Source: Microglena sp. YARC (taxonomy: Eukaryota; Chlorophyta; Chlorophyceae; Chlamydomonadales; Chlamydomonadaceae). From it: a DNA stretch of 64,000 nucleotides. The notes below the pieces were generated by a model that saw only the letters and a list, made by a program, of their open reading frames with translations, did no database searches and had not been told where the DNA came from. Below are positions 33,898 through 64,000 of this stretch, in pieces; the first letter of the stretch is position 1; each line of letters begins with the position of its first letter. Location: NCBI GenBank assembly GCA_022414725.1, contig CM039462.1, forward strand, positions 130,783,262-130,847,261, written 5' to 3'. The position numbers were made by a program, and so were the translations under genes.

Positions 33898-33908
33898 GAG
33901 GATGAAAT

Positions 33909-35202: not shown

Positions 35203-35516
35203 ATGAGGTCCCTCATCAATCCCCAATTGTCTGCCCACCAGCCGAAGCAGATTGCACACACACGCGCGGCTACACGCGCGGCTACACGTGCGGCAGCGAG
35301 AGCTTCCAAGCCTTCCACCCCAACTGCGGATAGCTTCGCAAGTCTCGACGAGGGCCACTTCGTCAACTTTAAATTCCCCGAAGACTTGGGTGAGACCTCC
35401 GAGAAGGCGAGGCAAGCGGCCTTTGAGGAATTGACTGCCCGGGCACGCCAGACCATCCGCACCACTGGCCTGTACAGGGCGCCGCTATCGGGAGGCGTGG
35501 CGAATGCTACATTGAA
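35203..35516 (+). CDS. PNPOx-like gene, exon 1
   Basis: Starts at ATG 35203 (MRSLINPQLSAHQPKQIA) and has three short RAA(T) repeats at residues 22-34. The donor GTAAGG at 35517 leaves two bases (AA). The next exon supplies G to give ...ANATLK|FDLPEP. Without splicing the frame would end two codons later, which explains the apparent 105-residue ORF. Confidence 0.75.
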
Positions 35517-38500
35517 GTAAGGCACCCGTGGGAGCTAGCTTAGAAGCCCATGCTCCCCCATGCATGGGCCCATGACCAAGTGGACCTCCTGGTTCCCCCG
35601 TGCTCCCAAGTCGGCATTCGGGACCAGATTCGGGACGCCCGACCACGGCGAGCCTTTTCATTTCCCCAACTCCAATCCCTACCACTCCTACCCCCTACCC
35701 CTCACCCGCATCTAATACCTTCAAGGTTCCCAAATCCCCATGCCCAGGCCAGGATTTGAAGTTTTTGCTCGGCCCCGCTCCCTACATAGGATGCATCATG
35801 GCGACTGGACAATTTATTTGCAGCTAGCATGCCTAGTCTAGCATTCTTCATATTTCATAGCTCGGACGGTCCTGGTGTGGAAATTGGGAGCAGTTTTGTT
35901 CGATTTTTCGATATCCACGATGGGGCCCGATGATGTGTTGAGCTCGAGCTGCTTCTTTGCGTGCCTGCTCCCACGTACGCAATCCGAGAATGTCCACCAG
36001 ATCGCTCTCTTTCCATCTCCTCGTTTTTGAAACCCTGCTGCATCTGATTCCTTCTTGTCCATGCATGTCAGTGTCGCATGAGATAAACGGTCCTTTTTCT
36101 TTTCCGTCTGCCACACATCGAGAAGCATGACTGTCCTGCGCGCATCCTGAGTCCTCGGATGCCCCAACACTCTGATGCAAATCCATCACTGTCTCTGCCA
36201 GAAGATCCACGCCTCAGATGGTCGATTATGCTATTTCCCATCTGTTCATTCCCCATCTGTCCATTTCCCACGTCATCCTACGGCAGCCTGCACCCTGCTC
36301 AGGTTGTTAAACAAGTGTTGAAAACCTGTTTATGTACATCATTGGTTCAACACGTAGATGTTGAACAGGTGTTTAAAACCCTGGACACCTGTCTAACAAC
36401 CCGAATAAGTGCAGGCTGCAGTATGTACTTCTAGCAATATTCAAGCCCATCTCCCCGTCAGTGAAAAGAGAAGGGATTGGATACCAGACTGTTGTCCAGA
36501 TTGTCCGAATATCCGGATTGATGCTTGCGTTTTTGTTTTTCTTGTCACGGTGGGCTGCACATGGGTTTTCTGTTTGTCGATGGAATGGTCGCAGGTGTGT
36601 GTGTGTGTGTGGTGGTGGTGGTGGTGGTGGTGGTGGTGGGGGGGGGGCAGAGGAGCTACACTAACCAGACCATCCATATTACCCCCACCCTCCTCCACCA
36701 CCCTTGCTGAACCATGGCGGTGCTCCCACCACCGCCCTCAACTGAACACAGACACCCTTACTTCCACCACTCTTGCCGATCTTTGCCCCCACGCTTGCCA
36801 TCTGCAGGTTTGACCTTCCTGAACCTGCCGTGTCTGTCCGCAACCTGGTCGAGTATGCACAGTACGGCCACCTGTGCACCCAGATGGGTCCTCTCCACCA
36901 CCGCCGCACTGGCTACCCCTTCGGCAATATGGTAGACTTTGCGGTGGATGGAGCTGGGTACCCCATATTTGGACTTTCTCAGCTGACCATCCATGCAAGG
37001 TGCGAAACATTGTTACATTATTTATTTTTGTTTGTATCATTTATCTTGACTCATGTTAGATAAGTTATCATGTAAGATTAGTAATTATGTGTCAGATCAA
37101 TTATAATTTATCTTGACTAATGTTAGATAAATAGTTATCGAGATTGTAAGTTACTAGAAATACTAATTTGGTAGACTTTGTAGTGGATGGAGCAGGGTTC
37201 CCCATCTTTTGACTTTCTCAGCTGACCATCCATGCAAGGTGCGAAACATTATTACATTATTTATTTTTGTTTGTATCATTTACCTTGACTCATGTTAGAT
37301 CAGCAGTTGTGTGTTAGATAAGTAATCATGTTAGATTAGTAGTTATGTGTCAGATCAATTATAATTTATCTTGACTAATGTTAGATAAGTAGTTATCGAG
37401 ATAGGAAGTTACTAGGAATACTAATATGGTAAGTTGCATTGGCATGATGTGGCAACGGTGTCTGGGGCTTGCCTAGGGGCTTGCCTAGGGGCTTGCCTAG
37501 GGGCTTGCCCGTGGCACCGTTGATCTTTTCTTAATGAGGTGGCCCTATGGTGACCACTGCTAGCTTCGGCTTACGCGGCGGTGTCCTTAACTTCACGTCC
37601 TGGGAGTAACTGCATTACACGGATGTAACAATTTCAATTTCAATCTCAATGGTAGACTTTGTGGTGGATGGAGCTTGGTACCCCATCTTCGTACTTTCTC
37701 AGCTGACCATCCATGCTAGGTGCTAACCATTACGTTATTTTATTTTATTATTTGTCTTGACTCATGTTTGATCAGGCACCCCATCTTCGGACTTTCTCAG
37801 CTGTCCATCCATGCAAGGTGCGAACCATTATGTTCTTTTATTTTTATTATCTGTCTTGACTCATGTTAAATGCGTTATCATGTTAGATTAGATGGTGCAG
37901 TTGAGGGAGATGATGGTGGTGACCACTTCATTTTTTTTGTGCGACGCGTCGCCAATTCTTCGCTGCATTGCGACGCATGGGTCTGGCTAAACTAGTCAGA
38001 TATGCTGTTCCCTACTTATAACCCGCGCATCAACTTGATGGAGGTGTCACGTGCATCCCCAGTGGTGCAGAAGCTAAATTATACACCTTGGTGTATTAAG
38101 GGTCAGGGCGGGGTCAGGGATATTTTTCCGGAATATATTCCGATCAGAATACGAGACCCCGTTTTGGCTAAAATTGCCGGAATAAGAAACCTAGAAAACA
38201 AAGTTTTTTTTTACTGAAATTGACTAAAAATGACCCAAATCGGCCCAAATCGGAATAAGGATCCTGTTTTGGGAGGAAAAAAGGGAGGAACAAAATAAAA
38301 AGGAATAAGATTTCCTCTTATTGATTTGAAAAACAAATCCTGTTGAGGATGCTACTTGGGGAGTTATTTTGGGCCCCCCAAAAGCTGCTAGTAGCACTCG
38401 AAAAGCTTTCCTAAGAAGAAAAAAACCCGATCCCAACATGATAGAACTCTGAGCAAAGAAAAGACAAAAAAGCCGCGTGCCTCCCAGGTGGTGGGGGCCC

Positions 38501-41500
38501 AAAGCTACGAGTAGCACTCGAAAAGATTTCTAAGCAGAAAAACCCGATCCCAACACTGTGATAGAACTCTGAGCAAAGAAAAGACAAAAAAGCCGCGTGC
38601 CTCCCAGGTGGTGGGGGCCAAAAAGCTACCAGTACTCTAGTAGCAGTTGAAAAGCTTTCGTTACAAAAACACCCTGATACCAGCATGATGGAGCTCTGTG
38701 CAAAGAAAAGACAAAAAAGCTACCAGTAGCTAAATTGTGCACCTTGATGTATTGAGGGTGCTACGTGCTAGAGCCTTGTGGGGTTTCGTTTGGGCGCCCA
38801 AAAAGCTCCTAGTAGCGCTCCAAAAGCTTTCATAAAAAAAGAACTGATCCCAACATGATAGGACCCTGGGGGAAAAAAGCCGCGTGTGTTCCTGGTAGTG
38901 GGGACCCAAAAGCTACTAGTAGCACTCCAAAAGCTTTATCTAGAAAAACCTGATCCCAACATTATGGAACCCTGTGCCCCCCCCACCCCCCCACCCACCC
39001 ACCTACCCACCCACCCACCCCACACACCCCACACACACCCACACACACGCAAAAAGCCGCGTGCCTCCCTGGTGGCGGGGGCCAAAAAGATAGTAGTAGC
39101 AATTGAAAAGCTTTCCGTAGAAAAACACCCTGATCCCAACACTGCAGGAACTTAGTGGAGGACCCACACGCCTCACTGGTGTTGCAGAAGCTAAATTGTG
39201 CACTTTGATGTATCGAGGGTGCTATCAGTATGTTGGAGCCTTATGGGGGTTCGTTTGGGCGCTCAAAAAGCTATCAGCAGCACTCCAAAAGCTTGCCTTA
39301 GAAAAACACCCGATCCCATCATGATAGGTATGATCCCAACACTGTGCACACCAAAAAAAGGCTGCGTGCCTCCCTGGTGGTGGGGCCCCAAAAGATGTTA
39401 GTGGCACTCCAAAAGCTTGCCTTAAAAAAACACCCTGATCCCAACTCTGTGCAAAGAATTATTGTCTTTTTGGGCCCCCAAAAGCTACTAGGAGCAATTG
39501 AAAAGCTTTCCGAAGATAAACACCCTGATCTCAGCACTGCAGGACCTTAATGGAGGAGCCGCACACCTCGATGTTGGTGCAGATGCTAAATTATGCACCT
39601 TGGTGTATAGAGGGTGCTACGGAAGGGCTTCCCAGGGTTTCTTTTGGGCGCCCAAACGGCTGCTAGTAGCACTTTAAAAGCTTTCCCTAGCAAAAACCTG
39701 TTCCCATCATGATGGGTATGATCCCAACACTGCGAATACAAAACAAGGCTGCGTGCCTCCCTGGTGGTGGGGGCCAAAAAGCTAGTAGTAGCAATCGCAA
39801 AGATTTACTTAGAAAGTACCCTGTCACAACGCTGCAGGAACTAAATGGAGGAGCCATGCGCCTCACTGGTGGTGCAGAAGCCACATGATGCACCTTGATG
39901 TATTGAGGGTGCTACTTCGGGGGCTTCTTGGGGGGGGGCCAGAGCTACTAGTAGCACTCAAAAAGCTTGACTTACAAAAAACATACTGCTCCCAACACTG
40001 CAGGAATTTAATGGAGGAGCCACGCGCCTCACTGGTAGTGCAGAAGCCACATTATGCACCTACATATATTTACCGTGCTATTTTGGGGGCTTCTTGGGGG
40101 GGGCCCAGAGCTACTAGTAGCACTCAAAAAGCTTTACTAAGAAAAAACATACTGCTCCCAACACTTCAGGAATTTAATGGAGGAGTCACGCGCCTCACTG
40201 GTAGTGCAGAAGCCACATGATGCACCTTGATGTATTGAGGGTGCTACTTTGGGGGCTTCTTGGGGGGGGCCCAGAGCTACTAGTAGCACTCAAAAAGCTT
40301 TATTCAGAAAAAACATACTGCTCCCAACACTGCAGGAATTTAATGGAGGAGCCACGCGCCTCACTGGTAGTACAGAAGCCACATTATGCACCTACATATA
40401 TTTGCCGTGCTATTTTGGGGGCTTCTTGGGGGGGGCCCAGAGCTACTAGTAGCACTCAAAAAGCTTTACTATGAAAAAACATACTGCTCCCAACACTTCA
40501 GGAATTTAATGGAGGAGTCACGCGCCTCACTGGTAGTGCAGAAGCCACGTGATGCACCTTGATGTATTGAGGGTGCTACTTCGGGGGCTTCTTGGGGGGG
40601 GCCCAGAGCTACTAGTAGCACTCAAAAAGCTTTATTCAGAAAAAACATACTGCTCCCAACACTGCAGGAATTTAATGGAGGAGCCATGCGCCTCACTGGT
40701 AGTACAGAAGCCACATTATGCACCTACATATATTTGCCGTGCTATTTTGGGGGCTTCTTGGGGGGGGCCCAGAGCTACTAGTAGCACTCAAAAAGCTTTA
40801 CTATGAAAAAACATACTGCTCCCAACACTTCAGGAATTTAATGGAGGAGTCACGCGCCTCACTGGTAGTGCAGAAGCCACATGATGCACCTTGATGTATT
40901 GAGGGTGCTACTTCGGGGGCTTCTTGGGGGGGGCCCAGAGCTACTAGTAGCACTCTAAAAGCTTTCCTTGAAAAAAAACTGATCCCAAGATGATGGAACT
41001 CTAAGTTAAGAAAAGACAGAAAGTTACTAGTAGCACTCCAAAACCTTTACTAAGAAAACACCCCGATCACAACACTGCAGAAACTTAATGGAGGAGCCAC
41101 GCGCCTCACTGGTGGTGCAGAAGCCAGGCTGGACAAGCCTCTCCAACGTCCGCGCTACTATCTTTGGTGAGGTGCAGATGCTCCCCGAGGCGCAGCAACT
41201 TGCTGCGGCTGAGCTCTTCCACTGTAAGCACCGAGGCGAGAGCTCACAGCGATTAATCGCAGGCAACTGCTTTTACTACCGGTATGTATTCTTTTATTAT
41301 TTCTACAGGGATGTATAATGTATTCTTTTATTATTACTACAGGGATATTTTATGTTATTATTATTACTACAGGAATGTATGTATTTTATTATTATTATTA
41401 CATGTATGTATTATGTTATTATTATTACTACAGGAATGTATGTATTTTATTATTATTATTACATGTAATGTATTATGTTATTATTATTACTACAGGAATG

Positions 41501-41661
41501 TATGTATTTTATTATTATTATTACATGTATGTATTATGTTATTATTATTACTACAGGAATGTATGTATTTTATTATTATTATTACATGTATGTATTATAT
41601 TATAATTATTACTACAGGAATGTATGTATTATGTTATTATTATTATTACATGCATGTATTA

Positions 41662-41700
<39 letters not shown>

Positions 41701-43389
41701 TACATATATATATTATGTTATTATAATTACCACATGTATGTATTATGTTATTATTATTACTACATGTATATATTATGTTATTATTATTATTATTATTATT
41801 ATTGTTACTACAGGCAGGTAGAACTCGACTACGTGTATGTATTATATTATTATTACTACAGGTATGTATGTATTACTTTATTATTTCTACAGGTATGTAT
41901 TACTTTATTATTACTACAGGTATGTATGTATTATTTTATTATGTTTTATGCGAAGAGAATCGCATAAGTGGTTGATCACTGTAGAACGAACTCAGAGCCT
42001 CCGTCGGTAAAACTGGTTTTACTGCAGGTGTGTTAAAAAGTGGGATGAGAATCGTAAAATTATAATGATAACGCCTGGTGGGGCGTGGTGTTAAGGGAGC
42101 CCGTCGTACGCGGGTGGGGAGCGGTCTCCTACCTCAACTGGACAAGCTACCATCGCGGTTGACGACGACCTGCAACGATCGTGAAATTAATTTATCACTG
42201 TAGAATGAACTCAGAGCCCCCGTTGGTAAAACGATTGTTTGGGGTTCAGTTCATCAGTGCTTTTTCTGTTTAGCCCCTCCTGCTATCATGGTCGGGCAAG
42301 GCCCTTTAGCCTATTTGGCTACCCCTGGACTGTAACCTGCACCAGTCTGAGCACCCCTGGACTGTAACAAACACCAGTCTGAGAATCCCAAGGACGCATG
42401 GGGCATAGCTGTGTGAGGTGGATGTACTATGTACGCTATGGACTGTAACAAAATATATACAGACTCACCTTCGTTTGAGCTTGCTCTACTGCCACCACGT
42501 CTGTTTCATCTGCGCCCGCTATGGGAGAACGTAGGATGTTGAGGTAGCCGCCTTTCTCCCTTGTGATGACAATGCAAGTGTTCAACATGCAACTGATTGT
42601 ACTACTGGATGAACAAGATCACAGAAGTACTTTTTACTACAGGAGGAGCAAGATCGCAGGCATATACTTATACTCTTTTACGCTTTTACTACAGGATGAG
42701 CAAGATCACTTACATACACTTCTCTACTTGTACGCTTGTACTATAGGATGAACAAGATCACAGAAGTACTTTTTTACTACAGGATGACCAAGATCACAGA
42801 CATATACTTATACTCTTTTCCACTTTTACGCTTTTACTACAGGATGAACAAGATCACTGACATACTTTTTACGCTTTTACACTTGTACTACCGGATGAAC
42901 AAGATCACGGATGTACACTTCGTCGGTGGTTTTGGTACTGTGCAGTGGATCAGCAAGGAGGATTACTTGAGCAATTCACCTGATGACATCGCCTTGGTGG
43001 ACACCTTTGCTGCACTCAAGGTGGGTGTCAGTATCCGTGGTTTAGGTTCTTTGGTTTTGGTACTTTGGTGAACACCTTTGCTGCACTCAAAGTGGGTCTC
43101 AGTATCCGTCAGACCCCGCCTCCCATCCTCAGCCCCCCTCCTTAGTTAGAGAGAGTGTTGAGTGATGAGTGAGTGTCGACCAGGTTGGAGAGAGTGTAGA
43201 TCGATTGTTAGTTGCGGGGTCCCTTCAGCCTATTTGGCTACCCCTGGACTGTACAAATACATACTTGTAGGTTGCAGGGTGGTGTCATTTGACTGTTTTT
43301 CTAGGTCATAAACGCTTATCATGAAGGCGCTTTCCCGTGCAACAACCAGGAAACCCGCAACAACATGCATATTTAAGTATATTAAAAAA

Positions 43390-43421
<32 letters not shown>

Positions 43422-44466: not shown

Positions 44467-44499
44467 ATGAGTTAATGTGATGCTTATTGTCACACCACC

Positions 44500-44580
44500 A
44501 CATACCACACCGCACCACCACACACCACCACCACACACCGCCACGCCACGCCACACCACCACTCACCAGACCACCACTTC
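44500..44580. repeat. (CACCAC)n-like simple sequence
   Basis: CACCACCACACACC and similar, just 3' of the gene. Confidence 0.85.
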
Positions 44581-48300: not shown

Positions 48301-48305
48301 TGGTG

Positions 48306-48368
48306 GCTGTGGTCTTCAAGCTAACCCGAGGTAGTCACTGCCTCTTCCCCCCCTCTCATCGTGCCAAT
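48306..48368 (-). repeat. Copy of the last exon end of the glycosyltransferase gene
   Basis: GTGGTCTTCAAGCTAACCCGAG, split here as GTGGTCTTCAAG and CCCGAGGTAGTC, resembles 48799-48860 (the last exon and its stop). It lies on the far side of the 68 bp array. Confidence 0.8.
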
Positions 48369-48369
48369 G

Positions 48370-48777: not shown

Positions 48778-48810
48778 GACTGAAATTTGAGGGCGGCTGT
48801 GGTCTTCAAG

Positions 48811-50051: not shown

Positions 50052-50095
<44 letters not shown>

Positions 50096-53805: not shown

Positions 53806-53874
<69 letters not shown>

Positions 53875-56800
53875 TCACAACAGCGCCCCTCCCCTTCATC
53901 CAGATCAGATCAGACAGCCTGCCCCTGGCCAACTACTCTGTAAACAATCTCTACCCTACTACCTTCTCACCTACCCTCCCACCCACCCCACATAAACCCA
54001 TTACCTACCTTCTCACCTACCCTCCCACCCACCCACATAAACCCTTTACCTACCTTCTCACCTACCCTCCCACCCACCCCACATAAACCCATTACCTACC
54101 TTCTCACCCACCCTCACCCCTCACCCACCCCCACCTACACCCGTGACCCACCCTCTCACCCCTCACCCACCCCACCTACACCCGTGACCTACCTTCTCAC
54201 CCACCCTCTCACCCACCTACCCCCTCACCCACCCCACCCCCCTCACCTACCCTCTCACTAACACACACCCCTCACCTGATCAGCAGGTCCGTAACTGCCA
54301 AAGTGGACCCCGTTCTGGTTTGAGAAGATGAAGGCCAGGAGCTCATGGTAGGAGGCACGCAGTTCAGTATGAGGCACGCAGTTCAGTATGAGGCACGCAG
54401 TTCAGGTACGTCCTACAACCCTCTGACCCACCCCAACCACCCCCCTCACCTACCCTATCACCCATTCACCCCCCTCACCTGATCAGCAGGTCCGTAGCTG
54501 CCAAAGTGAAGCCCATTCGTGTTTGAGAAGATGAAGGCCAGGAACTCATGGTAGGAGGCACGCAGTTCAGGTAGATTCATGAGCATGATGCCTGCGTTGT
54601 AAGGGAACTGGTTCCGAAACTCCCAGGCCATGGACAGGACGTTGGGAAGGGGAAGGCCTACAGACAAGGGCAGTGGGTGGTGTTGGTGTTGGTGATGATG
54701 CTGGTGATGATATTAGGGAGGAGTCGAGGAGAACCAAGCTTAAGATGATGAAGTTGATGACGATGATGCTGATGTTGGTGTTGATGCTGATGGGGAAAAG
54801 TATTAAAACGTTTTAGTGCTTTGTATCGCTTTTAGTAGCTTTTTAGGGCCATTTTAGGGAAGAACGAAAAAACCCCCAAAAAACACCCTGGGGGCTCCCG
54901 CCCCCCCTTCTGGGGGGCGGGAGCCCCCAGTGTTACCCATTTGTCCGTCCGTCCAACCATCCATCCATCCGTCTGACCGTGATGAAGCCTGACACGTCAG
55001 CCAACGGTCTCGTAACTAACTCGCTTCCATTGCCACCTGTCGCTCCCTCGCGATCACTCTCAGCCAATTTTTAGCGTCGCAGGCGACGCTGCATCGAACT
55101 TGTTGTACTTTTGTTTGTTTTTTATTTTGCTGAAACGGGGTCAAACTAGCGATTGCAGTATATAACAGAAAAATCTCCCCAGAGAGTCCCCAGAGGCTGG
55201 TGTGTGACAATGTTTGAGGAATTGAGCTTAGGACTAGCAAAGCGGGCTATGCAACAAGTTGCTCGAAGCATCTATGCAGTTGAGCTCATTATTTTTCTGT
55301 ACCGCTATTTTATGTTCTATATGATACGAAATCATCAAGGCTGATGGGACCACGGAAGCAGATGTCAGCGTCCGTGTACAGTACGCAAGTGGACTGGTTC
55401 AGCATGGGGACTGTGGAGACATGTTGTTATCATGGCATTGTTAAGTTTATGATTTCCCGTATTTTTGTATCTTCTATATGACACGCACCGAAATCATCAA
55501 GGCCGATGGGACCACGGAAGCAGACGTCAGCGTCCGTGTACAGTACGTATGTGTACTGGTTCAGCATGGGGACCACCGAGACGTCAATCCTCTGAAAGGT
55601 CGACATCAACATGTCTGCTGACTTGTAGAGGTGGCTGTGGAAGACGTTCTCCTACAGCAGGATGTGGTAGGGGTAGGGTGGGTGGGTGGGTGCTGGGGGA
55701 GGTGGGGGTAGGGGCAGGGTGGGTGGGTGGGTGGTGGTGGGGGTGGTTGGGGTGGGGTGGGTAGGGTCAGGGAGGGTGGGTAGTGGGGGTGGTGATGTCT
55801 TGTAGAGGTGGCTGTGGAAGACGTTCTCCTGCAGCGGGATGTGGTAAGGGTAGGGTGGGTGGGTGGTGGGGGTGGGGGTAGGGGAAGGGTGGGTGAGTTG
55901 TGGGGGGAGGGCAGGGTGGGTGTGTGGTGGGGGTAGTGGGGGTTATGGTGGCGCTATCAACATGTCTGCTGACTTGTAGAGGTGGCTGTGGAAGATATTC
56001 TCCTACAGCGGAATGTGGTAGGGGTAGGGGCAGGGTGGGTGGGTAGTGGGGATGGGGGTGGGGTGGGTAGGGCCAGGGAGGGTGGGTAGTGGGGGTGGTG
56101 ATGTCTTGTAGAGGTGGCTGTGGAAGACGTTCTCCTGCAGCGGGATGTGGTAAGGGTAGGGTGGGTGGGTGGTGGGGGTGGGGGTAGGGGAAGGGTGGGT
56201 GAGTTGTGGGGGGAGGGCAGGGTGGGTGGGTGGTGGGGTAGTGGGGTAGTGGGGGTTATGGTGGCGCTATCAACATGTCTGCTGACTTGTAGAGGTGGCT
56301 GTGGAAGACATTCTCCTACAGCGGGATGTGGTAGGGGTAGGGGCAGGGTGGGTGGGTAGTGGGGATGGGGGTGGGTGGGTAGGGCCAGGGAGGGTGGGTA
56401 GTGGGGGTGGTGATGTCTTGTAGAGGTGGCTGTGGAAGACGTTCTCCTGCAGCGGGATGTGGTAAGGTTGGGTGGGTGGTGGGGGTGGGGGTGGTGGGGG
56501 TAGGGGCAGGGTGGGTGGTGGGGGTAGGGGCAAGGTGGTTGGGTAGTTGGGGTGGTAGGGTAGGGGCTGGGTGGGTGAGTAGTGGGGCTGGTGAGGGTAG
56601 GGGCAGGGTGGGTGGGTGGCGGTGGTAGGGGCAGGGTGGGTGGGTAGTGGGGATGGTGGTGGTAGGGGCAGGGTGGGTGGGTAGTGGGGGTGGTGGTGGT
56701 AGGGGCAGGGTGGGTGGGTAGTGGGGGTAATGGGGGTAGGGGCAGGGTGGGTGGGTAGTGGGGGTGGTGGGGGTAGGGGCAGGGTGGGTGGGTAGTGGGG

Positions 56801-59800
56801 TGGTGGGGGTAGGGGCAGGGTGGGTGGGTAGTGGGGGTGGTGGGGGTAGGGGCAGGGTGGGTGGGTGGTGGTGATGGCAGGGACAGGGTGGGTGGGTTGG
56901 TGGTGGTGGCGGTAGGGGAAGGGAGGATTGGTGGTGGTGGTGGGAGCAAGGTGGGTGGGTGGTGGTGATGGTGGGGACAGGGGGGGTCGGTGGTGCTGCT
57001 CTTGGTAGTGGTGTTGGCAGTGTTGGTGTTGGTTGTGGAAGTGGTTGTGGAAGTGGTTGTGGGAGTGTTGGTTATTTTGGTGGTGAAGATTCTAATAATG
57101 GTGATGACAACGGTGATGATGATGATGATGAGAAAACAGTGGAAGATTACGATCACAGTCACCAACAAGGCTGCAAATTAACGTTAGGTGGATGTATGTG
57201 TGGTTGGACGGATGGATGTGTGGGCGGACGGATGCATGTGTGTCTGGATGGAAGGATGTGTGGGCGGGTGTACGGATGGATGCATGGATGTGTTGGTGAG
57301 AGGGTGGACAGATGGATGGATGTGTATGAGTGAGAAAGAAAGGAAGGATGGATGGATGATCAATTGTATACTATTTCTGGACTGTACTGAACCCACAAAA
57401 CCTCACACCAGTCTGCCCTCTCCTGCCCCATCAAGCCCTCTCCTGCACTGCCCTATCCAATCATGCCCTGCCACTTCCTGGCCTCTCCTGCCCCTTCATT
57501 CCTGCACCTTAATGTTCTCCTTAGCCTTCTCCACCAGCAGACCACCCCAGGAGGGCTTTCTATACTTTACTGAATCTACAGAACCTCACACTCTCAGTCT
57601 GCCCTATCCTGCACTGCCCCATCCTGCCCTATCCTGCACCTTCATGTTCTCCTTAGCCTTCTCCACCAGCAGACCACCCCAGGAGGGCTTTCTATACTTT
57701 ACTGAATCTACAGAACCTCAAACTCTCAGTCTGCCCTATCATACACTGCCCCATCCTGCCCTATCCTGCACCTTCATGTTCTCCTTAGCCTTCTCCACCA
57801 GCAGACCACCCCAGGAGGGCTTTCTATACTTTACTGAATCTACAGAACCTCACACTCTCAGTCTGCCCTATCATGCACTGCCCCACCCTGCCCTATCCTG
57901 CACCTTCATGTTCTCCTTAGCCTTCTCCACCAGCAGACCACCCCAGGAGGGCTTTCTATACTTTACTGAATCTACAGAACCTCACACTCTCAGTCTGCCC
58001 TATCATGCACTGCCCCACCCTGCCCTATCCTGCACCTTCATGTTCTCCTTAGCCTTCTCCACCAGCGGAACACCCCAGGAGGGCTTTCTATACTCTACTG
58101 AATCTACAGAACCTCACACTCTCAGTCTGCCCTATCATGCACTGCCCCACCCTGCCCTATCCTGCACCTTCATGTTCTCCTTAGCCTTCTCCACCAGCAG
58201 CTCACCCCAGGAGGGTTTGTGGTTGATGAGGGTGACGTTATGGTCGGCTAGCCATTGGTAGATCGTTGACGTCTTATTTCCGCTGAAGATGCAGTACGGC
58301 TTGACAGACTTGTACTGCACACGAGCGGGGTCACATTGAGGTCAAAGTGAAGGTCTCAACCAGTTGTGGGTAAACACCGGGAGTTAGTATGATGTTGTTG
58401 GTGGTGTTGATGGTGGCGGTGTTGATGGTGGTGGTGATGATGGTGGTGGTGATGATGGTGGTGGTGATGATGGTGGTGGTGTTGATGGTGTTGATGATGA
58501 TGGTGGTGTTGATGGTGGTGTTGATGGTGGTGTTGGTGGTGTTGATGGTAGTGTTCATGTTGGTGTTGATGTTGGTGTTGATGTTGGTGTTGATGTTGTT
58601 GGTGATGTTGATGATGGTGGTAGTGATGATAGTGGTGGTTGCATTATCCTGGTGCCTGATTGGACTATAAATGCACCTGCAGCTTGACGGTGCTAAGGGG
58701 GACTGATGGTTAGCATCACACAGGCATCACACTACACAAGAAAATGACACTGCGCACTGCCACCTGGAGCATGTATATATACTATAATCATAGGTGAACA
58801 TCAAATTACTTTTCACATATTTCAGTGCCCCTTTAAAATAGTATTAATATTATTAATGATAATCATAATAATAATAATAAATTTGATTGTGTGGGGTCCT
58901 ACATTGAGCGCACTGCATAATGCCACCTTGAGAATGTAGTCATAAGAAATGCTACATGAGTTGTAGGTGTACACCGATTTTCGAAATTTTAATTGTGGGG
59001 TCCTACATTGAGCGCACTGCGTACTACCACCTTGAGAATGTAGTCGTAAGAAATGCTACATGAGTTGTGGGTGTACACCGATTTTCGAAATTTGAATTTT
59101 AATTGTGGGGTCCTACCTTGAGCACACTGCGACCTGCCACCTTGACAATGTAGTCGTAACAAATGCAACACGAGTTGTGGGTGTACACTGATTTTCGAAA
59201 TTTGAATTTGAATTGTGGGGTCCTACCTTGAGTGCACTGTGTACTGCCACCTTGAGCATGTATTCGTAAGAAAGGCTCCATGAGTTGTGGAAGAACGCCG
59301 ATTTCAAGGTTCGTTTGTACATCTCAACATCAATTGGAATTTGAATTTGAATTGGGCAGCCCTACCTTGAGCGCACTGCGTACTGCCACCTTGAGCATGT
59401 AATCGTGTGAGGGGCTCCATGAGTTGTAGGTGAAAACCGATTTCAATTTCATTCCTACTTCTCAACATCAATTTGAATTTGAATTTAAATTGGGCAGCCC
59501 TACCTTGAGCGCACTGCGTACTGCCACCTTGAGCATGTAATCGTATGAAGGGCTCCATGAGTTGTAGGTGAAAACCCACGGCAGCCTATGCAGCCCTCGC
59601 AGGAAAGCGGTGATGGGCACATTGCCTGATACACGCAAGACAAAGGATAGTCAGATACAGTTAGAATATAATGTATAAGTTACAGAATGCTCTTGAATGC
59701 GGTGATGGGCAGATTGCCTGATACACGCAAGACAAAGGATAGTCAGATACAGTTAGAATATAATGTATAAGTTACAGAATGCTCTTGAATGCGGTGATGG

Positions 59801-62757
59801 GCACATGCCTGAGAAAAGCAAGACAAGTGATAGTCAGATACAGTTAGAATATAATTAATAAATGACAGAATGCTCTTGAATGCGGTGATGGGCACATTGC
59901 CTGTGAAAAGCAAGACAAAGGATAGTCAGATACAGTTAGAATATAATGTATGAGTTACAGAATGCTCCTGAATGCGGTGATGGGCACATGCCTGAGAAAA
60001 GCAAGACAAGTGATAGTCAGATACAGTTAGAATATGATTAATACATTACAGAATTCTCCTGAATGCGGTGATGGGCACATGCCTGAGAAAAGCAAGACAA
60101 GTGATAGTCAGATACAGTTAGAATTTAATTAATAAATGACAGAATTATCTTGAATGCAGTGGTGGGAAGATTGCTTGAAACACGCAAGACAAGGGATAGT
60201 CAGATACAATGATGATATTATGAATAAATAATTGTGTACTATTATCATAAATTATAGAATGATCATGAATGCAGTGGTGGACAGATTGCCTGAAACACGC
60301 AAGACAAGGAATACTAAGATAAAATTATGATACCGGTATAATGTATAAATAATTAATATTCAATCATATTTCAATAATATTCAATATAATTATAAATTAT
60401 AGAATGATCTTGAATGTGGTCATGGTCACATTGCCTGATTCATGCAAGACAAGGAATAGCCAGATACAATTATAATATAATGTATAAATAATGATTCAAT
60501 ATAATTATAAATGATTGAATGATCTTGAATGCGGTGATGGGCACATTGCCTGATTCACGCAAGACAAAGAATAGCCAGATGCAATGATACAATAATGAAT
60601 ACATTATTATATATTATCAGTTTAAACGATATAATGCATTTGAATGGGGTGATAGGCACGTTGTCTGGTACACGCCAGACAGGGGATAGCCAGGAATCTC
60701 CGATTGCCCAAGAACAACGAATTCACACTTTGGGGGGGAGGGGGGGGGGGGGGGGGGGGGGGGTTATACGGAATACAGCTTCCAGATAGCTCCACCAGCC
60801 AGCCAGTGGGTCAATCCCACAGCTTTAAGCTTTTTCAAATGGAGGATGTTCACCTCAAAGGCAGGGTCTATATTGGAAAGCTCGTCATGCCAGCTTTCAG
60901 AATCAATAGCTAGCTTCAGGTTCGCCCCACGGGCGGGTGAAGGGAGCTGGCTACAAGCTACTACCAGTAGCCAAAAATAAAACAGTGGAATTACAATGAC
61001 TGATACAATTGTCATAGGCAAGCCAGTGTTGACCCAAGACAAGCCCACACCACGACATACTACAGGTACACATACATTGGAGTGCTTGTGCCCTGCCCTG
61101 CCCTGCAGGGGCTTTAAGCTTGATGGACTGCTCAACACAGCTCACATGCAAACATTGACTATTATAATTGTCATAGGCAGCCCCGTGTTGACCCAAGACA
61201 AGTCCACACCACAACTCCCGGGGGGGGCTTCCAACTGTCCTCTCTTCATCAACAGAATGTAGTTATGATGCTGATGATGCTAATGATGGTGCTGCTGCTG
61301 CTGATGATGATGTTGATGTTGGTGCTGATGTTGATGATGTTGATGATGGTGCTGATGCTGCTGCTGATGTTGGTGCTGATGCTGATGCTGATGATGTTGA
61401 TGATGGTGCTGATGCTGATGATGTTGATGATGGTGCTGATGCTGCTGATGATGTTGATGTTGATGCTGATAATGATGATGCTGATAATGATGATGCTGAT
61501 AATGATGATGCTGATGCTGATAATGATGCTGATAATGATAATGCTGATGTTGATGTTGATGTTGATAATGATGATGCTGATGTTGATGATGCTGATACTG
61601 ATTATGATGCTGATGATGATTTCGATGCTGATGATGTTGATGCTGATGTTGGTGATGATGATGATGCTGATGATGATGCTGATGTTGGTGATGATGATGC
61701 TGATGATGACATTTTTCCTGGTGCCCTACGAGACATCTAATGTGCCTGCAGCTTGCTGAGCCAAGGGAGACTTATACGTACGCAGAGAGGTATAAGGAAC
61801 CACATAATTGATAATCACTCTAGGTAACGAAAACGCCTGGTGGGGCCGCGTTAGGCCCCCAACCGCTTTTAGGGTTGCGTTGGGGCCCCAACCGCTTTTG
61901 GGGTTGCAACTGCTGCTAGTAGCACCCCTAAGGTAATGGTAACGCCTGGTGGGGCGTGGTGTTAAGGGATCCTGTCGTACGCGGGCAGAGAACGGTGTAC
62001 CACCTCGACTGGACAAGCTACCATCGCGGTTGACAACGACCTGCAACGCTAAGGATGACCATAAGGGGAATCGAACCCCCGACACTTTGTTGTTAAAGCG
62101 ATTTGGCGTACCACTAGACCAATCGTATCATTGAAATGGGCTATAACCACTCTATGTATGAAGGAACGACACAGTTTATGAAGGACCCACACAATTTTGG
62201 TTATAAGTACAGTTACTTATTGACTGGTGAACGAACCCCATCTGTGCTGTAGCCCATCGGCTGTGGCAGATAAAGGCAGCTGCCTAGAAGCTGCTACGAG
62301 TAGTTACAGACAGAAACAGTCGAATGCACTTCACCTGTGTCGTAGTACGCCACCCATCGGCTGTGGTACCGACGTTCTAACACTGCAATAGCTGAAAAGG
62401 TGGGGACACTGTTGTACTTCACCAGTGTTGTAGTACGCCGCCCATCGGCTGTGGTGCCGACATTCTAGCATTGCAATAGCTGAAAAGGTGGGGACACTGT
62501 TGTACTTCACCTGTGTTGTAGTACGCTGCCCATCGGCTGTGGTGCCGACGTTCTAGCATTGCAATAGCTGAAAAGGTGGAGACACTGTTGCCAATGAACT
62601 TGTGCGCCGACAAAGCGATGTAGTAGTCCATAAGGGCTCGGTGCTCACGTTTGAGCGTGCCGTCAAGTTCTCCCATGATTGAGGGCAGCGTGACAACCTT
62701 GTAGTTGGCCAGGCGCAGGCGTTCCATGATGGATGTGTTCAGGCGAGAGTCGACATC
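48811..62757 (-). CDS. Putative two-domain glycosyltransferase, ten exons, 5' incomplete
   Basis: Exons on minus, in order: 62757-62511, 60909-60796, 59625-59504, 58314-58168, 55651-55489, 54657-54479, 53415-53219, 52172-52070, 50306-50193, 48924-48811. Phases agree at all nine junctions; 499 codons plus TAA. The first visible exon resembles the C-terminal end of GDP-fucose O-fucosyltransferase-like proteins (LSAHKFIGNSVSTFSA). The rest resembles GT8-type GT-A enzymes: YVLYTDADVCFRG with DxD, NAGIMLMNL, GPADQGAFNQ, and HYHGPKP (compare the HxxGxxKP of GT8). The first phase-0 acceptor implies more coding exons beyond the window. It is probably a Golgi enzyme by family, but no membrane segment is visible in the part present. 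Confidence 0.75.
48940..49110 (+). repeat. (GAT)n and (GCT)n tract plus CCTGGTGCC element
   Basis: (GAT)n, then GCTGCTGATGG and TTCTTCCTGGTGCCCTACTG. The same order (GAT/GCT microsatellite, then CCTGGTGCC) recurs at 58385-58720 and 61265-61780. Confidence 0.65.
49240..49385. repeat. Three ~55 bp tandem repeats
   Basis: AATTTGAATTCAAGCGCCAA followed by TGA.GGCAGGCACTAGC, three times at about 49253, 49306 and 49344, within intron 9. Confidence 0.85.
49397..49432 (-). repeat. Copy of exon 10 5' end with acceptor
   Basis: On minus CTGCAG|GTGGTGACCAAGGGCC then GCACCTCCTTCAT, matching the exon 10 start at 48924 (GAGGTGACCAAGGGCC). It could serve as an alternative acceptor. Confidence 0.85.
49665..49830 (+). 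repeat. Dispersed repeat R1, copy 2
   Basis: Shares CCTGGCTTCGGTC, CACCTGTCGCTTCGATAGCC, CAATTTTTTCGCGTCG and GACTTGTTTTCAGG with 43560-43680. Followed by a CACATACA-rich tract to about 49970. Confidence 0.7.
49978..50009 (-). repeat. Copy of exon 9 3' end with donor
   Basis: On minus GGCACCACCATGATCGATGC then CAAT|GTGAGATG; exon 9 ends GGCACCACGATGAGCGATGC and AAAT|GTGAGATG. Confidence 0.85.
50053..50092. repeat. Poly-C tract
   Basis: About 40 C in a row; G run on the sense strand of the glycosyltransferase gene (intron 9). Confidence 0.9.
50094..50130 (-). repeat. Copy of middle of exon 9
   Basis: On minus CAAAACTTCAAAAGGAGCTA then CACAAGACCATCA, matching exon 9 (CTTCACAAGAAGCTACACAA, GACCATCA). 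With 49978-50009 it forms one exon 9 copy split by the poly-C tract. Confidence 0.85.
50193..50306 (-). CDS. Glycosyltransferase exon 9
   Basis: Acceptor CTCCTGCAG, phase 0; donor AAAT|GTGAGA, phase 0. Encodes ANDHWMASEAPTPTMLELHK and KLHKTISALQGTTMSDAN, a helical C-terminal segment outside the catalytic core. Confidence 0.7.
50318..51030. repeat. Intron 8 minisatellite
   Basis: Units of about 30 bp (GAAAGAGGCTCACAATGTCA CTGACCAGGA) alternate with a longer variant (GAGGAGCTGGGAAGAAATGG GTCATGATGTCACT), giving a higher-order period of about 104 bp (for example 50407 and 50511). These are not exon copies. Confidence 0.92.
51075..52064 (-). repeat. About nine copies of exon 8 3' end with donor, plus TTTAGGG motifs
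   Basis: CACTCACCACAGATT(G/C) followed by (A/G)GAGAGCCAG(C/T)CACA repeats at about 51111, 51210, 51309, 51405, 51505, 51644, 51755, 51852 and 51950. It is the reverse complement of the exon 8 end CTGGCTCTC...ATCTGTG|GTGAGTG, and almost every copy keeps the donor. Spacers read GTTTAGGCTTTAGGGTTGG. Period is about 95-135 bp. Confidence 0.93.
52070..52172 (-). CDS. Glycosyltransferase exon 8
   Basis: Acceptor ACCCCAG, phase 2 in (CG|G = Arg); donor CTGTG|GTGAGTG, phase 0. Encodes (R)SLCWYNKELLLHMDENPHV RNRLQSACDWLSESV. Copies of its start lie upstream at 52471-52520 and 52626-52673, copies of its end at 51075-52064. Confidence 0.75.
52180..52470. repeat. (GGGTT)n / (GGGGT)n array
   Basis: About twenty GGGTT units at 52316-52425 with GGGGTGGGAT variants. 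On the gene sense strand this is (AACCC)n, a long pyrimidine-rich region before the exon 8 acceptor. Confidence 0.92.
52471..52520 (-). repeat. Copy of exon 8 5' end with acceptor
   Basis: CATGTGCAAGAGCAGCTCCC and CAGCACAGGGACCTGGGG, the reverse complement of CCCCAG|GTCCCTGTGCTG...CTTGCACATG. Confidence 0.9.
52626..52673 (-). repeat. Second copy of exon 8 5' end with acceptor
   Basis: CTCGTCCATGTGCAACAGCA and ATAGCAGCACAGGAACCTGG; on minus CCAG|GTTCCTGTGCTGCTAT. Confidence 0.9.
52990..53180 (-). repeat. Dispersed repeat R1, reverse copy
   Basis: Reverse complement of family R1: ACAAGTTCTATGCAGCGTCGC, split as ACAAGTTC and GCAGCGTCGC, then GTTGGCTGACGTGTCAGGCTTC (in parts), a (GGTCGGTC)n tract at 53088-53128, and GGAGGCTCCCGCC. 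Confidence 0.7.
53219..53415 (-). CDS. Glycosyltransferase exon 7
   Basis: Acceptor CACCCAG, phase 0; donor CTCCG|GTGAGA, phase 2. Encodes GAFNQFYETQLKEKVLDQKY, NSKPYNDQIGNAVIVHYHGP and KPHEYLAYLETGKCDFYWLC plus EQAFL. It joins exon 6 as ADQ|GAFNQ, the usual DQ..FN block, and contains HYHGPKP, the metal/nucleotide-binding motif region of GT8-like enzymes. If unspliced, a TGA follows directly; the phase match to exon 8 favours splicing. Confidence 0.8.
53515..53735 (-). repeat. Two diverged copies of exon 7 5' end with acceptor
   Basis: 53520-53563 on minus reads CAGGGCACCTTCGTCCAGTT ACATAAGACCCAGC. 53666-53735 reads CTAGGTCGCCTTAACCATTT CTATACTTGTATGAGACCAG C. Both follow exon 7 (CAGGGCGCCTTCAACCAGTT CTATGAGACGCAGC). 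(GT)n tracts separate them. Confidence 0.85.
53740..53872. repeat. (GT)n followed by (GA)n
   Basis: Long dinucleotide runs in intron 6; on the gene sense strand they are (CT)n then (AC)n. Confidence 0.9.
53940..54275. repeat. C-rich repeats CCTACCTTCTCACC
   Basis: Degenerate repeats of CTACCTTCTCACCTACCCTC and CCACCCACATAAACCC, each 55-60 bp, in intron 6. Confidence 0.85.
54283..54402 (-). repeat. Copy of exon 6 3' end with donor
   Basis: CTCACCTGATCAGCAGGTCC to GAGGCACGCAGTTCAG duplicates 54475-54572. Within it TATGAGGCACGCAGTTCAG is itself repeated three times. Confidence 0.92.
54479..54657 (-). CDS. Glycosyltransferase exon 6
   Basis: Acceptor CTGTAG, G|GC phase; donor GATCAG|GTGAGG, phase 0. 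Encodes GLPLPNVLSMAWEFRNQFPY, NAGIMLMNLPELRASYHEFL and AFIFSNTNGLHFGSYGPADQ. NAGIMLMNL is the typical FNAGVMLxNL-like block of GT8/GT-A enzymes. Confidence 0.82.
54885..55115 (+). repeat. Dispersed repeat R1 with a perfect hairpin
   Basis: Starts with GGGGGCTCCCGCCCCC and its complement GGGGGCGGGAGCCCCC around a short TTCT loop (54890-54928). Then come (CCGT/CATC)n, GCCTGACACGTCAGCCAACG and GGTCTCGTAACTAACTCGC, CCAATTTTTAGCGTCGCAGG and CGACGCTGCATCGAACTTGT. It lies in intron 5. Confidence 0.75.
55325..55425 (-). repeat. Copy of exon 5 3' end with donor region
   Basis: GAAATCATCAAGGCTGATGG...GTACAGTACGCAAGTGGACT GGTTCAGCATGGGGAC duplicates 55490-55573 (glycosyltransferase exon 5). The flanking intron sequence is duplicated as well. 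Confidence 0.9.
55489..55651 (-). CDS. Glycosyltransferase exon 5 (DxD)
   Basis: Acceptor TGTAG, phase 0; donor TTTCG|GTGCGT, phase 1. Encodes ENVFHSHLYKSADMLMSTFQ RIDVSVVPMLNQYTYVLYTD ADVCFRGPIGLDDF. Y-T-D-A-D is the DxD metal-binding motif of GT-A glycosyltransferases, expected at this place between the nucleotide-binding half and the acceptor half. Confidence 0.82.
55660..56960 (-). repeat. Five copies of exon 5 5' end with acceptor, in GGTGGG repeats
   Basis: CTTGTAGAGGTGGCTGTGGA AGACGTTCTCCT(A/G)CAGC recurs at about 55797, 55971, 56104, 56285 and 56416. It is the reverse complement of the exon 5 start (55651). Between and beyond them lie GGTAGGGGCAGGGTGGGTGG repeats up to about 56960. 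The 403-codon Pro-rich minus frame over this region is repeat-derived. Confidence 0.92.
57184..57360. repeat. GGATGGATGTGTGGGCGG repeats
   Basis: (GGATG)n-related simple sequence in intron 4 of the glycosyltransferase gene. Confidence 0.85.
57500..58110 (-). repeat. Five copies of exon 4 3' end with donor
   Basis: CTGCACCTTCATGTTCTCCT TAGCCTTCTCCACCAGCAG then ACCACCCCAGGAGGG occurs near 57501, 57634, 57766, 57897 and 58031, with a period of about 131 bp. It matches the exon 4 end (58168). All keep CAC at the donor (GTGCAG on minus). The 357-codon plus-strand frame over them is an artefact of the repeat. Confidence 0.95.
58168..58314 (-). CDS. Glycosyltransferase exon 4
   Basis: Acceptor GTGTGCAG, phase 0; donor ATGAAG|GTGCAG, phase 0. 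Encodes YKSVKPYCIFSGNKTSTIYQ, WLADHNVTLINHKPSWGELL and VEKAKENMK. This belongs to the nucleotide-binding half of the GT-A fold (LKPYCIF.G...I..WL...V.LI). Confidence 0.8.
58385..58720 (+). repeat. (GGTGAT)n tract plus CCTGGTGCC element
   Basis: GGTGATGATGGTGGT-type repeats to about 58640, then TATCCTGGTGCCTGATTGGA, GCACCTGCAGCTTGACGG. Homologous to 61712-61780. Confidence 0.75.
58735..59480 (-). repeat. Five to six copies of exon 3 3' end with donor
   Basis: TACCTTGAGCGCACTGCGTA CTGCCACCTTGAGCATGTA then TCGTA...GCTCCATGAG starts at about 58900, 59004, 59113, 59222 and 59362, with a degraded copy at 58748. It is the reverse complement of the exon 3 end (59504 upward). CTTGAG|GTA-like donors are kept. 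Intron pieces (CCGATTTTCGAAATTTGAAT) are duplicated along. Confidence 0.93.
59504..59625 (-). CDS. Glycosyltransferase exon 3
   Basis: Acceptor TATCAG, G|GC; donor CTCAAG|GTAGGG, phase 0. Encodes (G)NVPITAFLRGLHRLPWVF TYNSWSPSYDYMLKVAVRSA LK. WVFTYNSW...Y..ML..A..S.L is the first beta strand and helix of the GT-A-like domain. Confidence 0.8.
59690..60690 (-). repeat. About ten copies of exon 3 5' end with acceptor
   Basis: GCGGTGATGGGCACATTGCC TGAT(A/T)CACGCAAGACAA occurs near 59699, 59791, 59881, 59975, 60065, 60157, 60271, 60415, 60528 and 60645, each followed by GATAGTCAGATACAGTTAGA. On minus each reads CAG|GCAATGTGCCCATCACCGC, the exon 3 start, or a variant of it. Period is about 90 bp near the exon, longer further away. 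Confidence 0.93.
60732..60764. repeat. Poly-G tract
   Basis: Near-pure G run in intron 2 of the glycosyltransferase gene, directly downstream of exon 2. Confidence 0.9.
60796..60909 (-). CDS. Glycosyltransferase exon 2
   Basis: Acceptor GAAGCTAG and donor GGCTG|GTGGAG give phase 1 at both sides. Encodes (A)IDSESWHDELSNIDPAFE VNILHLKKLKAVGLTHWLA. It links the fucosyltransferase-like segment to the GT8-like domain. The acceptor is the only one I found that keeps the frame; its pyrimidine tract is weak. Confidence 0.6.
61005..61225. repeat. Two-copy duplication in intron 1
   Basis: ATTGTCATAGGCA(A)GCC followed by GTGTTGACCCAAGACAAG(C/T)CCACACCAC occurs at about 61006 and 61166. Confidence 0.88.
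61265..61790 (+). repeat. (GATGCT)n tract plus CCTGGTGCC element
   Basis: About 445 bp of GAT/GCT/GTT triplets, then TTTTCCTGGTGCCCTACGAG and TGCCTGCAGCTTGCTGAG. The triplet run gives a 164-codon Met/Leu frame that is not a gene. Confidence 0.85.
61935..62128 (-). repeat. tRNA-derived SINE candidate
   Basis: On minus it starts with a tRNA-like head (62125-62052), continues into a body shared with 42065-42185 and ends near GTTACCATTACC. A tRNA head plus a dispersed body is the structure of a SINE. Confidence 0.6.
62052..62125 (-). tRNA. tRNA-like sequence (probable pseudogene or SINE head)
   Basis: Read on minus it has an A-box-like TTGGTCTAGTGGT, a perfect B box GGTTCGATTCC within a good T arm, and an anticodon-like stem (CGCTT/AAGTG) around TAACAACA, which could place AAC as anticodon. 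The acceptor stem pairs poorly and the anticodon loop is one base too long, so I do not call it a functional tRNA. Confidence 0.35.
62220..62503 (-). repeat. Three copies of exon 1 3' end with donor
   Basis: TGTTGTAGTACGCCGCCCAT CGGCTGTGGTGCCGAC...GCTGAAAAGGTGGGGACACT repeats at 62335 and 62423, exactly 88 bp apart and 88 bp from the exon copy at 62511, with a degraded copy from about 62245. Each copy keeps CTTCAC, i.e. the GTGAAG donor on minus. Confidence 0.95.
62511..62757 (-). CDS. Glycosyltransferase exon 1 of those visible (fucosyltransferase-like)
   Basis: Acceptor CCTCCAG, phase 0; donor ACACAG|GTGAAG, phase 1. Encodes DVDSRLNTSIMERLRLANYK, VVTLPSIMGELDGTLKREHR, ALMDYYIALSAHKFIGNSVS and TFSAIAMLERRHHSRWAAYY. 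The D..I...A..FIGNSVSTFSA block resembles the last conserved motif of GDP-fucose O-fucosyltransferase-like proteins. An acceptor at its start shows it is not the first exon of the gene. Confidence 0.72.
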
Positions 62758-62779
62758 CTGGAGGGGGGTGAGTACGGAA

Positions 62780-62935
62780 TGGGATGGGTTGGATGGGTTG
62801 GATGGGATGGGATGGGTTGGAAGGGATGGGATGGGTTGCGTTTGGCTGGAGTTATTCTGTTTTGTTCTGTTTTGTTCTGTTCTGTTATGGTTTGTTATGC
62901 TTTGTTATTATGTTTTGGTTTGCACATGATGGAGG
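62780..62935. repeat. (GGATGGGTT)n and (TTCTGTTTTG)n simple sequence
   Basis: GATGGGTTG repeats and then TTCTGTTTTGTTCTG repeats. The same pair recurs at 63025-63115 and 63220-63290 with each exon copy. Confidence 0.85.
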
Positions 62936-63450
62936 GGTGTGTATGGATCTTATGGTTGGCCAGAAGCATGGGTTCCATGATGGAGGTGTTCAGGCGAGAG
63001 TTGACATCCTGCAAGGGGGTGAGTGCGGGGATGGGATGGGATGGGATGGGTTTGGCTGGGGTTATTCTGTTTTGCTCTTTTCTGTTCTGTTTTGTTCTGT
63101 TGTTGTTTTGTTCGTACATGATGGAGGTGTGTGTGCCTCTCTTATGGTTGTCCAGAAGCATACGTTCCATGATGGAGGTGTTCAGGCGAGAGTCGACAGC
63201 CTGGAGGGGGGTGAGTGTGGGGACTGGCTTGGTTGGGTTGGGTTGGTTGGTCTGGATAAATCATGTTTTCTTTTGTTCTGTTTTGGTGCTCCCATGATGG
63301 AGGGGAGTGTGACAATCTGATGGTTGGCCAGAAGCATGTGCTACATGATGGATGCGTCCAGGCAAGAATCGACAGCCTGGAGGGGGGTGAGTCGACAGTC
63401 TGGAGGGGAGTGATGGTTGGCCAGATGATGGATGCATTCAGGCAAGGATC
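62935..63450 (-). repeat. Four copies of exon 1 5' end with acceptor
   Basis: GTTCCATGATGGAGGTGTTC AGGCGAGAGT.GACA.CCTG then (G/C)A(G/A)GGGGGTGAGT occurs near 62972, 63164, 63341 and (shorter) 63417. It is the reverse complement of the exon start at 62757. Copies also include the preceding coding sequence (GACAATCTGATGGTTGGCCA). Period is about 175-190 bp. Confidence 0.93.
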
Positions 63451-63980: not shown

Positions 63981-64000
63981 AGTGTTTGCGGTCGCTGTCA

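What the first reader, a model, noticed from the sequence alone, without database searches (positions are those of the whole stretch)
35203..63450. Exon edges with their splice sites are tandemly copied into nearly every intron of two unrelated genes
In the PNPOx-like gene (+) and the glycosyltransferase gene (-), copies of exon 3' ends with the GT donor lie directly downstream of the exon, and copies of 5' ends with the AG acceptor lie directly upstream of the next one. I see this for exons 2-5 of the first gene and exons 1 and 3-10 of the second, with 1 to about 18 copies. The copies include 30-100 bp of coding sequence plus adjoining intron. This fits repeated tandem duplication centred on exon-intron boundaries, growing introns inward from both ends. 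The copies are decoy splice sites the cell must ignore, or could use. I know of no described mechanism that predicts both edges of most introns being multiplied.
Basis: seen in the sequence. Interest (0 to 1): 0.9.

Follow-up and report, generated by a model that had tools for sequence, protein, structure and literature searches.

The report
Exon-edge repeats filling algal introns
In this green alga, short tandem duplications have copied the edges of exons, splice sites included, into the neighbouring introns of the two genes read here and of eight other genes; it is likely a harmless by-product of a genome that duplicates short stretches everywhere, and it matches the 'mirage' repeats already described in lancelets.

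Summary
In the two genes, 19 of 25 splice edges are copied into the adjacent intron. All 64 same-strand exon copies in the window lie beside their source: 32 exon heads upstream, 28 tails downstream, 3 fragments downstream, and 1 copy across a stop codon, so a splice site is not required. Elsewhere in the 568-Mb genome, 26 of 52 exon matches in 11 chaperonin genes have such copies. A boundary-centred mechanism is not supported: chaperonin exon ends are crossed by local duplications about as often (27 of 82) as random points (92 of 339), while exon midpoints are spared (4 of 40). Best reading: tandem duplication everywhere, with selection removing copies inside exons and tolerating those that leave the outermost splice sites in place. 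The phenomenon has a name, lancelet 'mirage' minisatellites, and repeats near intron ends are reported in Chlamydomonas and Volvox. New are the lineage, the density, and one exon whose own acceptor reads CG, so that an in-frame copy 51 nt upstream is predicted to be used. The two genes exceed the chaperonin sample (18 of 24 versus 27 of 82), probably because they were picked for the pattern.

The parts
35203..44466 (+). PNPOx/CREG-like gene: exons 35203-35516, 36808-36999, 41081-41281, 42894 (or 42843)-43020, 44212-44466
   Evidence: joined frame open; Pfam PF13883 E 9e-16; tblastn with P0003
48813..62757 (-). O-FucT/GT8-like gene, nine exons: 62757-62511 (Ga), 59625-59504 (Gb), 58314-58168 (Gc), 55651-55489 (Gd), 54657-54479 (Ge), 53415-53219 (Gf), 52172-52070 (Gg), 50306-50193 (Gh), 48924-48813 (Gi, ends at the stop codon); further exons beyond the window
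   Evidence: joined frame open; weak PF01501 and PF10250; tblastn with P0038
37165..37891 (+). 3 copies of the exon 2 donor edge
   Evidence: exonic part 43-74 nt, GT kept in all 3
38032..41080 (+). 10 copies of the exon 3 acceptor edge, mostly 166 bp apart
   Evidence: identity of the exonic part 81-96%
41282..41942 (+). array of the exon 3 donor edge (7-9 nt exonic, unit about 30 or 61 bp)
42597..42893 (+). array of the exon 4 acceptor edge; the exon-proximal site itself reads CG
43065..43109 (+). 1 copy of the exon 4 donor edge
43955..44211 (+). 2 copies of the exon 5 acceptor edge
62758..63446 (-). 3-4 copies of the Ga acceptor edge
62325..62510 (-). copies of the Ga donor edge, period 88 bp
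59626..60693 (-). copies of the Gb acceptor edge, period about 91 bp (9 alignments, 6 exon-only hits)
58748..59503 (-). 5-6 copies of the Gb donor edge
57508..58167 (-). 5 copies of the Gc donor edge, period 132 bp
55652..56446 (-). 5 copies of the Gd acceptor edge
55308..55411 (-). 1 copy of the Gd donor edge (GT not kept)
53959..54367 (-). 1 copy of the Ge donor edge followed by a 46-bp intronic array
53416..53798 (-). 2 diverged copies of the Gf acceptor edge (found with the extended query only, 67-71% identity)
   Evidence: not found by the exon-only search
52173..52808 (-). 2 copies of the Gg acceptor edge
51069..52069 (-). 9 copies of the Gg donor edge
49977..50125 (-). copies from the Gh donor side
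49397..49442 (-). 1 copy of the Gi acceptor edge
48302..48372 (-). 1 copy of the stop-codon edge of Gi, placed in the 3' flank beyond a 68-bp array

Best explanation
The copies are tandem duplications of short stretches (about 50-500 bp) that straddle an exon edge, and they most likely accumulate because this alga's genome duplicates short stretches everywhere while selection keeps only those that leave the outermost splice sites in place. A duplication across a donor gives exon - intron start - exon tail - intron start, so the first donor still ends the same exon and the extra copy becomes intron; across an acceptor the last AG still starts the exon (the anatomy is shown; which sites are used is inferred from the open frames). 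Duplications wholly inside an exon mostly damage the protein and are removed (inferred from their scarcity). Each survivor lengthens the intron, and the exon edge, which cannot be lost, keeps serving as a source, so copies pile up inward from both ends. Growth started, by inference, from introns of roughly 100-250 bp. The cell is predicted to splice from the exon-proximal sites and to ignore the copies, as reported for lancelet 'mirages'.
For: All 64 same-strand copies in the window lie next to their source on the side that tandem duplication demands; in 8 of 11 chaperonin genes, 45 upstream copies all hold the 5' part and 54 downstream copies all hold the 3' part of the exon match, none antisense. 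Chaperonin exon ends 27/82 versus random points 92/339 (P = 0.34), exon midpoints 4/40 (P = 0.02 against the same points). By segments: exons 26/52, intron segments 94/154, gene flanks 21/48, seven unrelated loci 44/70, L010/L012 26/40. A copy spans a stop codon. Uniform-placement simulation from 150-250 bp introns gives 16.6-20.2 of 24 edges, 18 of 24 seen; with 35% inserted DNA, 100-200 bp gives 17.0-17.7. Median introns of six relatives 198-343 bp (PMC8226300, passages). Identity to the exon declines with distance (one-sided P = 0.03, 9 arrays).
Against: In the two window genes edges do exceed intron points (18/24 versus 58/150, P = 0.0015) and chaperonin exon ends (27/82, P = 0.0003). The simulation needs short starting introns and nearly full tolerance: 300 bp with 35% inserts gives 12.9 edges, and 30% tolerance gives 6.6-13.8; without inserts it predicts more crossed intron points (0.54-0.77 for 150-250 bp) than the 0.41 seen. 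The exonic share of the unit is not uniform (mean 0.38, KS P = 0.003). Single-copy intron sequence today has a median near 600 bp. The stretch between the genes is poor in duplications (6/150; 6/80). No transcript evidence.
Confidence: 0.75

Rival explanations
1. A mechanism aimed at exon-intron boundaries, for instance transcription- or splicing-coupled breakage and repair, duplicates the edges themselves.
For: In the two window genes 19/25 edges versus 61/150 intron points; 18 of 32 repeat families hold a splice edge, and families with an edge (stop included) make up 9681 of 11673 repeat bases.
Against: No excess at chaperonin exon ends (27/82 versus 42/154 intron points of the same genes, P = 0.37); a stop-codon edge is copied too; the two genes were picked for the pattern. 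The chaperonin ends are HMM match ends, which could hide a modest excess.
Confidence: 0.12
2. The arrays are kept because they do something: extra splice sites enforce or regulate splicing, or serve as spares.
For: Copies keep GT in 32 of 36 and AG in 37 of 39; mismatch at the dinucleotide 0.07-0.08 versus 0.11-0.12 in exonic and 0.16-0.18 in intronic parts. In exon 4 of the first gene the own acceptor reads CG and in-frame AG copies lie 51, 111 and 147 nt upstream.
Against: The exonic part is also closer to the source than the intronic part, as expected because the exon itself does not change, so the dinucleotide figures (6 of 78 and 5 of 72) need no selection; 8 of 11 chaperonin genes have copies and 3 have none; no transcript data.
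Confidence: 0.07
3. The introns were born by tandem duplication of coding segments that hold AG|GT (the model of Rogers and later authors).
For: Intron between exons 3 and 4 of the first gene: its two junctions align with score 22, next best own intron 16, mean of mismatched pairs 11.3; overall permutation P = 0.046.
Against: 11 of 12 introns show no such clear likeness; tail copies lie at the intron start and head copies at its end, the reverse of what that model predicts.
Confidence: 0.04
4. Assembly artefact or wrong exon models.
For: The scaffold holds a run of N near 11.5-12.5 kb, and exact copy numbers in arrays may be wrong.
Against: Exonic parts of the copies are 75-97% identical to the source, not identical; the pattern recurs in 8 of 11 chaperonin genes; exon models are open and homologous.
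Confidence: 0.02

Closest known systems
'Mirage' minisatellites of lancelet genes (Adh3, globins BflGb6 and BflGb9, troponin C, PGBD5; PMC3087553 and PMC3902484, passages read)
   Same: Tandem repeats that span an exon-intron boundary, at 5' or 3' boundaries, units of about 10-160 bp, many copies with intact AG/GT.
   Different: Green alga instead of lancelet; 19 of 25 edges of two genes and 8 of 11 chaperonin genes rather than single genes; splicing and length instability not tested here.
Tandem repeats enriched near intron-exon junctions of Chlamydomonas reinhardtii and Volvox carteri (PMC3887541; abstract, passages and one results section read)
   Same: Same broad group; introns carry the highest repeat density; more repeats near intron ends.
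   Different: In what I read that study does not say that the repeats contain exon sequence or splice sites.
Intron gain by tandem duplication of AGGT-bearing exon segments (Rogers model; potato case PMC4974935 seen in a listing with its abstract start only)
   Same: Tandem duplication inside a gene with splice sites in the unit.
   Different: There the new intron starts with a copy of the downstream sequence; here the intron start holds copies of the upstream exon's end. One intron of 12 is a candidate.
Introners (recalled; PMC9860276 seen in a listing with its abstract start only)
   Same: Intron sequence multiplied in protists.
   Different: Introners are dispersed; these copies sit beside their own exon.

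Membership tests
mirage minisatellites | tandem repeat unit spans an exon-intron boundary | tested here: met
   19 of 25 edges
mirage minisatellites | either the 5' or the 3' boundary of an exon can be involved | tested here: met
   10 of 12 donors and 9 of 13 acceptors
mirage minisatellites | many, not all, units keep the splice dinucleotide | tested here: met
   GT 32 of 36, AG 37 of 39
mirage minisatellites | regular splicing of the mRNA is not disturbed | not testable with these tools
   no transcripts; open frames only suggest it
mirage minisatellites | array length is unstable between alleles or cells | not testable with these tools
   one assembly, no reads
intron gain by tandem duplication of coding DNA | donor and acceptor neighbourhoods of one intron are copies of each other | tested here: not met
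   11 of 12 introns without clear likeness; the intron between exons 3 and 4 of the first gene is a candidate
introners | related sequence dispersed among introns of different genes | tested here: inconclusive
   0 of 64 same-strand exon copies lie away from their source, but only the window was searched for them

The most novel reading that the evidence does not exclude
Edge copies are a standing reserve of splice sites that genes fall back on: in exon 4 of the PNPOx-like gene the true acceptor has decayed to CG and an intronic copy 51 nt upstream has taken over, adding 17 in-frame residues, so that genome-wide edge duplication drives intron sliding and protein growth in this alga.
Probability: 0.25. 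Interest if true: 0.65.

Novelty: new member of a known kind. Interest (0 to 1): 0.45.

Why it matters
It shows that the lancelet 'mirage' pattern also occurs in a green alga, at a density that makes it countable. One can ask across thousands of exons how often a copied splice site is ignored, used or takes over, and how much of a large genome's intron length is plain tandem duplication. It also warns that gene prediction in such genomes will meet many decoy splice sites and partial exons.

Tried and rejected
Boundary-directed duplication was rejected as the main cause after the chaperonin control. An earlier control inside the window had made introns look special against most other window DNA; the wider sample did not bear that out. 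Intron gain: one candidate of 12. Sides with and without copies did not differ in distance to the next exon match (medians 1414 and 1033, P = 0.36). Genes differ: chaperonin genes CCT4, CCT5 and CCT7 have copies at 0 of 11 exon matches, the other eight at 26 of 41 (heterogeneity P = 0.02); I have no explanation. Rfam and tRNA scans of the window gave nothing. Of the 64 family matches listed I used 52, in 11 clusters of 3 or more, and dropped 12 isolated or intronless ones; 12 of the 52 have a stop inside and were left out of the midpoint control. Exon ends there are HMM match ends, not annotated splice sites. The random points in L002-L008 and L010/L012 are of unknown coding status, and L002-L008 were fetched because they share a repeat with intron 1. 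The figures for exonic share were typed in. No report of such exon-edge repeats in algae was seen in the listings of searches of an open-access library; the founding lancelet Adh paper is not held and is known to me only through two papers that cite it.

Full report
What is there. The window holds two unrelated nuclear genes of a green alga. The plus-strand gene (35203-44466) encodes a PNPOx/CREG beta-barrel protein (Pfam E 9e-16). The minus-strand gene (48813 to beyond 64000) encodes a protein with weak O-FucT and GT8 matches, below the curated cut-offs. The best-scoring named homologs of both are Chlamydomonas, Edaphochlamys, Volvox, Haematococcus and Sanguina, which I recall as Chlamydomonadales. 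I built 5 and 9 exons; both joined frames are open through 12 introns, and Chlamydomonas schloesseri proteins align exon by exon over most of them. Every donor is GT and every acceptor AG except that of exon 4 of the first gene, which reads CG.

The copies. Exons searched against the window gave 64 same-strand copies: 32 exon heads, all in the upstream intron (for the first exon in the window, Ga, the upstream flank); 28 tails, all in the downstream intron; 3 interior fragments, also in the downstream intron; and 1 that spans the stop codon and lies in the 3' flank. None was elsewhere. The both-strand version added two weak antisense matches. Extended into the intron, copies affect 19 of 25 splice edges, 10 of 12 donors and 9 of 13 acceptors, with offsets of about 50 bp upwards and about 7-92 nt of exon. 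Copied splice sites are mostly intact: GT in 32 of 36 and AG in 37 of 39.

More than chance. With one test, 19 of 25 edges were crossed by a local duplication, against 61 of 150 random intron points, 6 of 150 points between the genes, 8 of 150 at 22-34.5 kb, 0 of 150 at 12.6-18 kb, and 86 of 150 in the G-rich stretches at 5-11.3 and 18.1-20.9 kb. Of 32 repeat families in the two gene spans, 18 hold a splice edge, 1 the stop codon, 12 no coding sequence and 1 exon sequence away from an edge; a complexity filter lost the Gd acceptor family.

Is the edge the target? The window alone suggested so. The whole genome (568,105,699 bases in 2390 contigs) gives a fairer sample. I took 11 chaperonin genes on five large contigs. 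26 of 52 exon matches, in 8 of the 11 genes, have copies nearby; all 45 upstream copies start in the first quarter and all 54 downstream copies end in the last quarter of the exon match, and none is antisense. When flanking sequence was added to the query, 42 of 60 downstream and 36 of 50 upstream alignments ran more than 15 nt past the end of the exon match. So the pattern is general. But with the same point test 27 of 82 exon ends are crossed, against 42 of 154 intron points of these genes, 30 of 105 points in seven loci fetched for another repeat, 20 of 80 points in DNA flanking the window, and 41 of 193 points at 1-34.5 kb; only 4 of 40 exon midpoints are. Exon ends do not differ from random points (27/82 versus 92/339 for the first three classes, P = 0.34), while midpoints are spared (P = 0.02). 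Local tandem duplication is thus common throughout the sampled DNA, with exon interiors as the exception. The window genes stand above the chaperonin genes (18/24 versus 27/82, P = 0.0003); I ascribe this to their having been picked for the pattern, which is untested.

Mechanism. A tandem duplication across a donor or an acceptor leaves the outermost splice site and the message unchanged, so it can survive, and the copy becomes intron. That yields the head-upstream, tail-downstream rule without any aiming device. In a simulation with uniformly placed duplications, introns that grow from 150-250 bp to their present lengths get 16.6-20.2 of 24 edges copied; 18 of 24 are seen. With 35% inserted single-copy DNA, a start of 100-200 bp gives 17.0-17.7, and 300 bp gives 12.9, too few; if only 30% of edge duplications are tolerated, the count drops to 6.6-13.8. 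Median introns in six relatives are 198-343 bp (PMC8226300, passages). Against a simple version: without inserts the simulation predicts more crossed intron points than seen; the exonic share of units is not uniform; and today's single-copy intron lengths exceed the inferred start. Identity to the exon declines with distance (one-sided P = 0.03 over 9 arrays), as expected if the exon keeps seeding copies.

Exon 4. Its own acceptor reads ACCG|G, while most copies upstream read AG|G. Splicing to the nearest one (exon start 42843) keeps the frame and adds 17 residues; two further copies are also in frame and open. Either a copy has taken over, or a CG acceptor is used, or one base is wrong; only cDNA can tell. 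The same intron is the one of 12 whose two junctions clearly resemble each other.

What is known. [quoted passage not shown] Tandem repeats are enriched near intron-exon junctions in Chlamydomonas reinhardtii and Volvox (PMC3887541, abstract, passages and one section). I file this as mirages in a new lineage; two defining features, undisturbed splicing and length instability, could not be tested.

Noticed in passing
36275-36400: A stretch of intron 1 of the PNPOx gene has relatives (80-86% identity) at about 40 other places in the genome, a lower bound; many match on both strands, so it looks like a short palindromic (MITE-like) element.
   Followed up: partly
42890-42894: The acceptor next to exon 4 reads CG; in-frame AG copies lie 51, 111 and 147 nt upstream.
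   Followed up: partly
5000-11300 and 18100-20900: Long G-rich arrays with units of about 50-130 bp and a shared, CAG-bearing core; the two stretches also share short translated motifs. They may be introns of an unrecognised minus-strand gene.
   Followed up: no
25871-34155: Open frames that look by eye like LTR- and LINE-type retroelement proteins (motifs recalled, no family search).
   Followed up: no
35260-35294: A 12-bp unit repeated 2.9 times inside exon 1, so frame-keeping repeats within coding sequence do occur.
   Followed up: no
L046, L047-L048, L050: Three of 11 chaperonin genes (0 of 11 exon matches) lack edge copies while the other eight have them at 26 of 41.
   Followed up: no
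62060-62140 (-) and 63930-64000 (-): tRNA-like stretches by eye; ARAGORN and Rfam report none.
   Followed up: no
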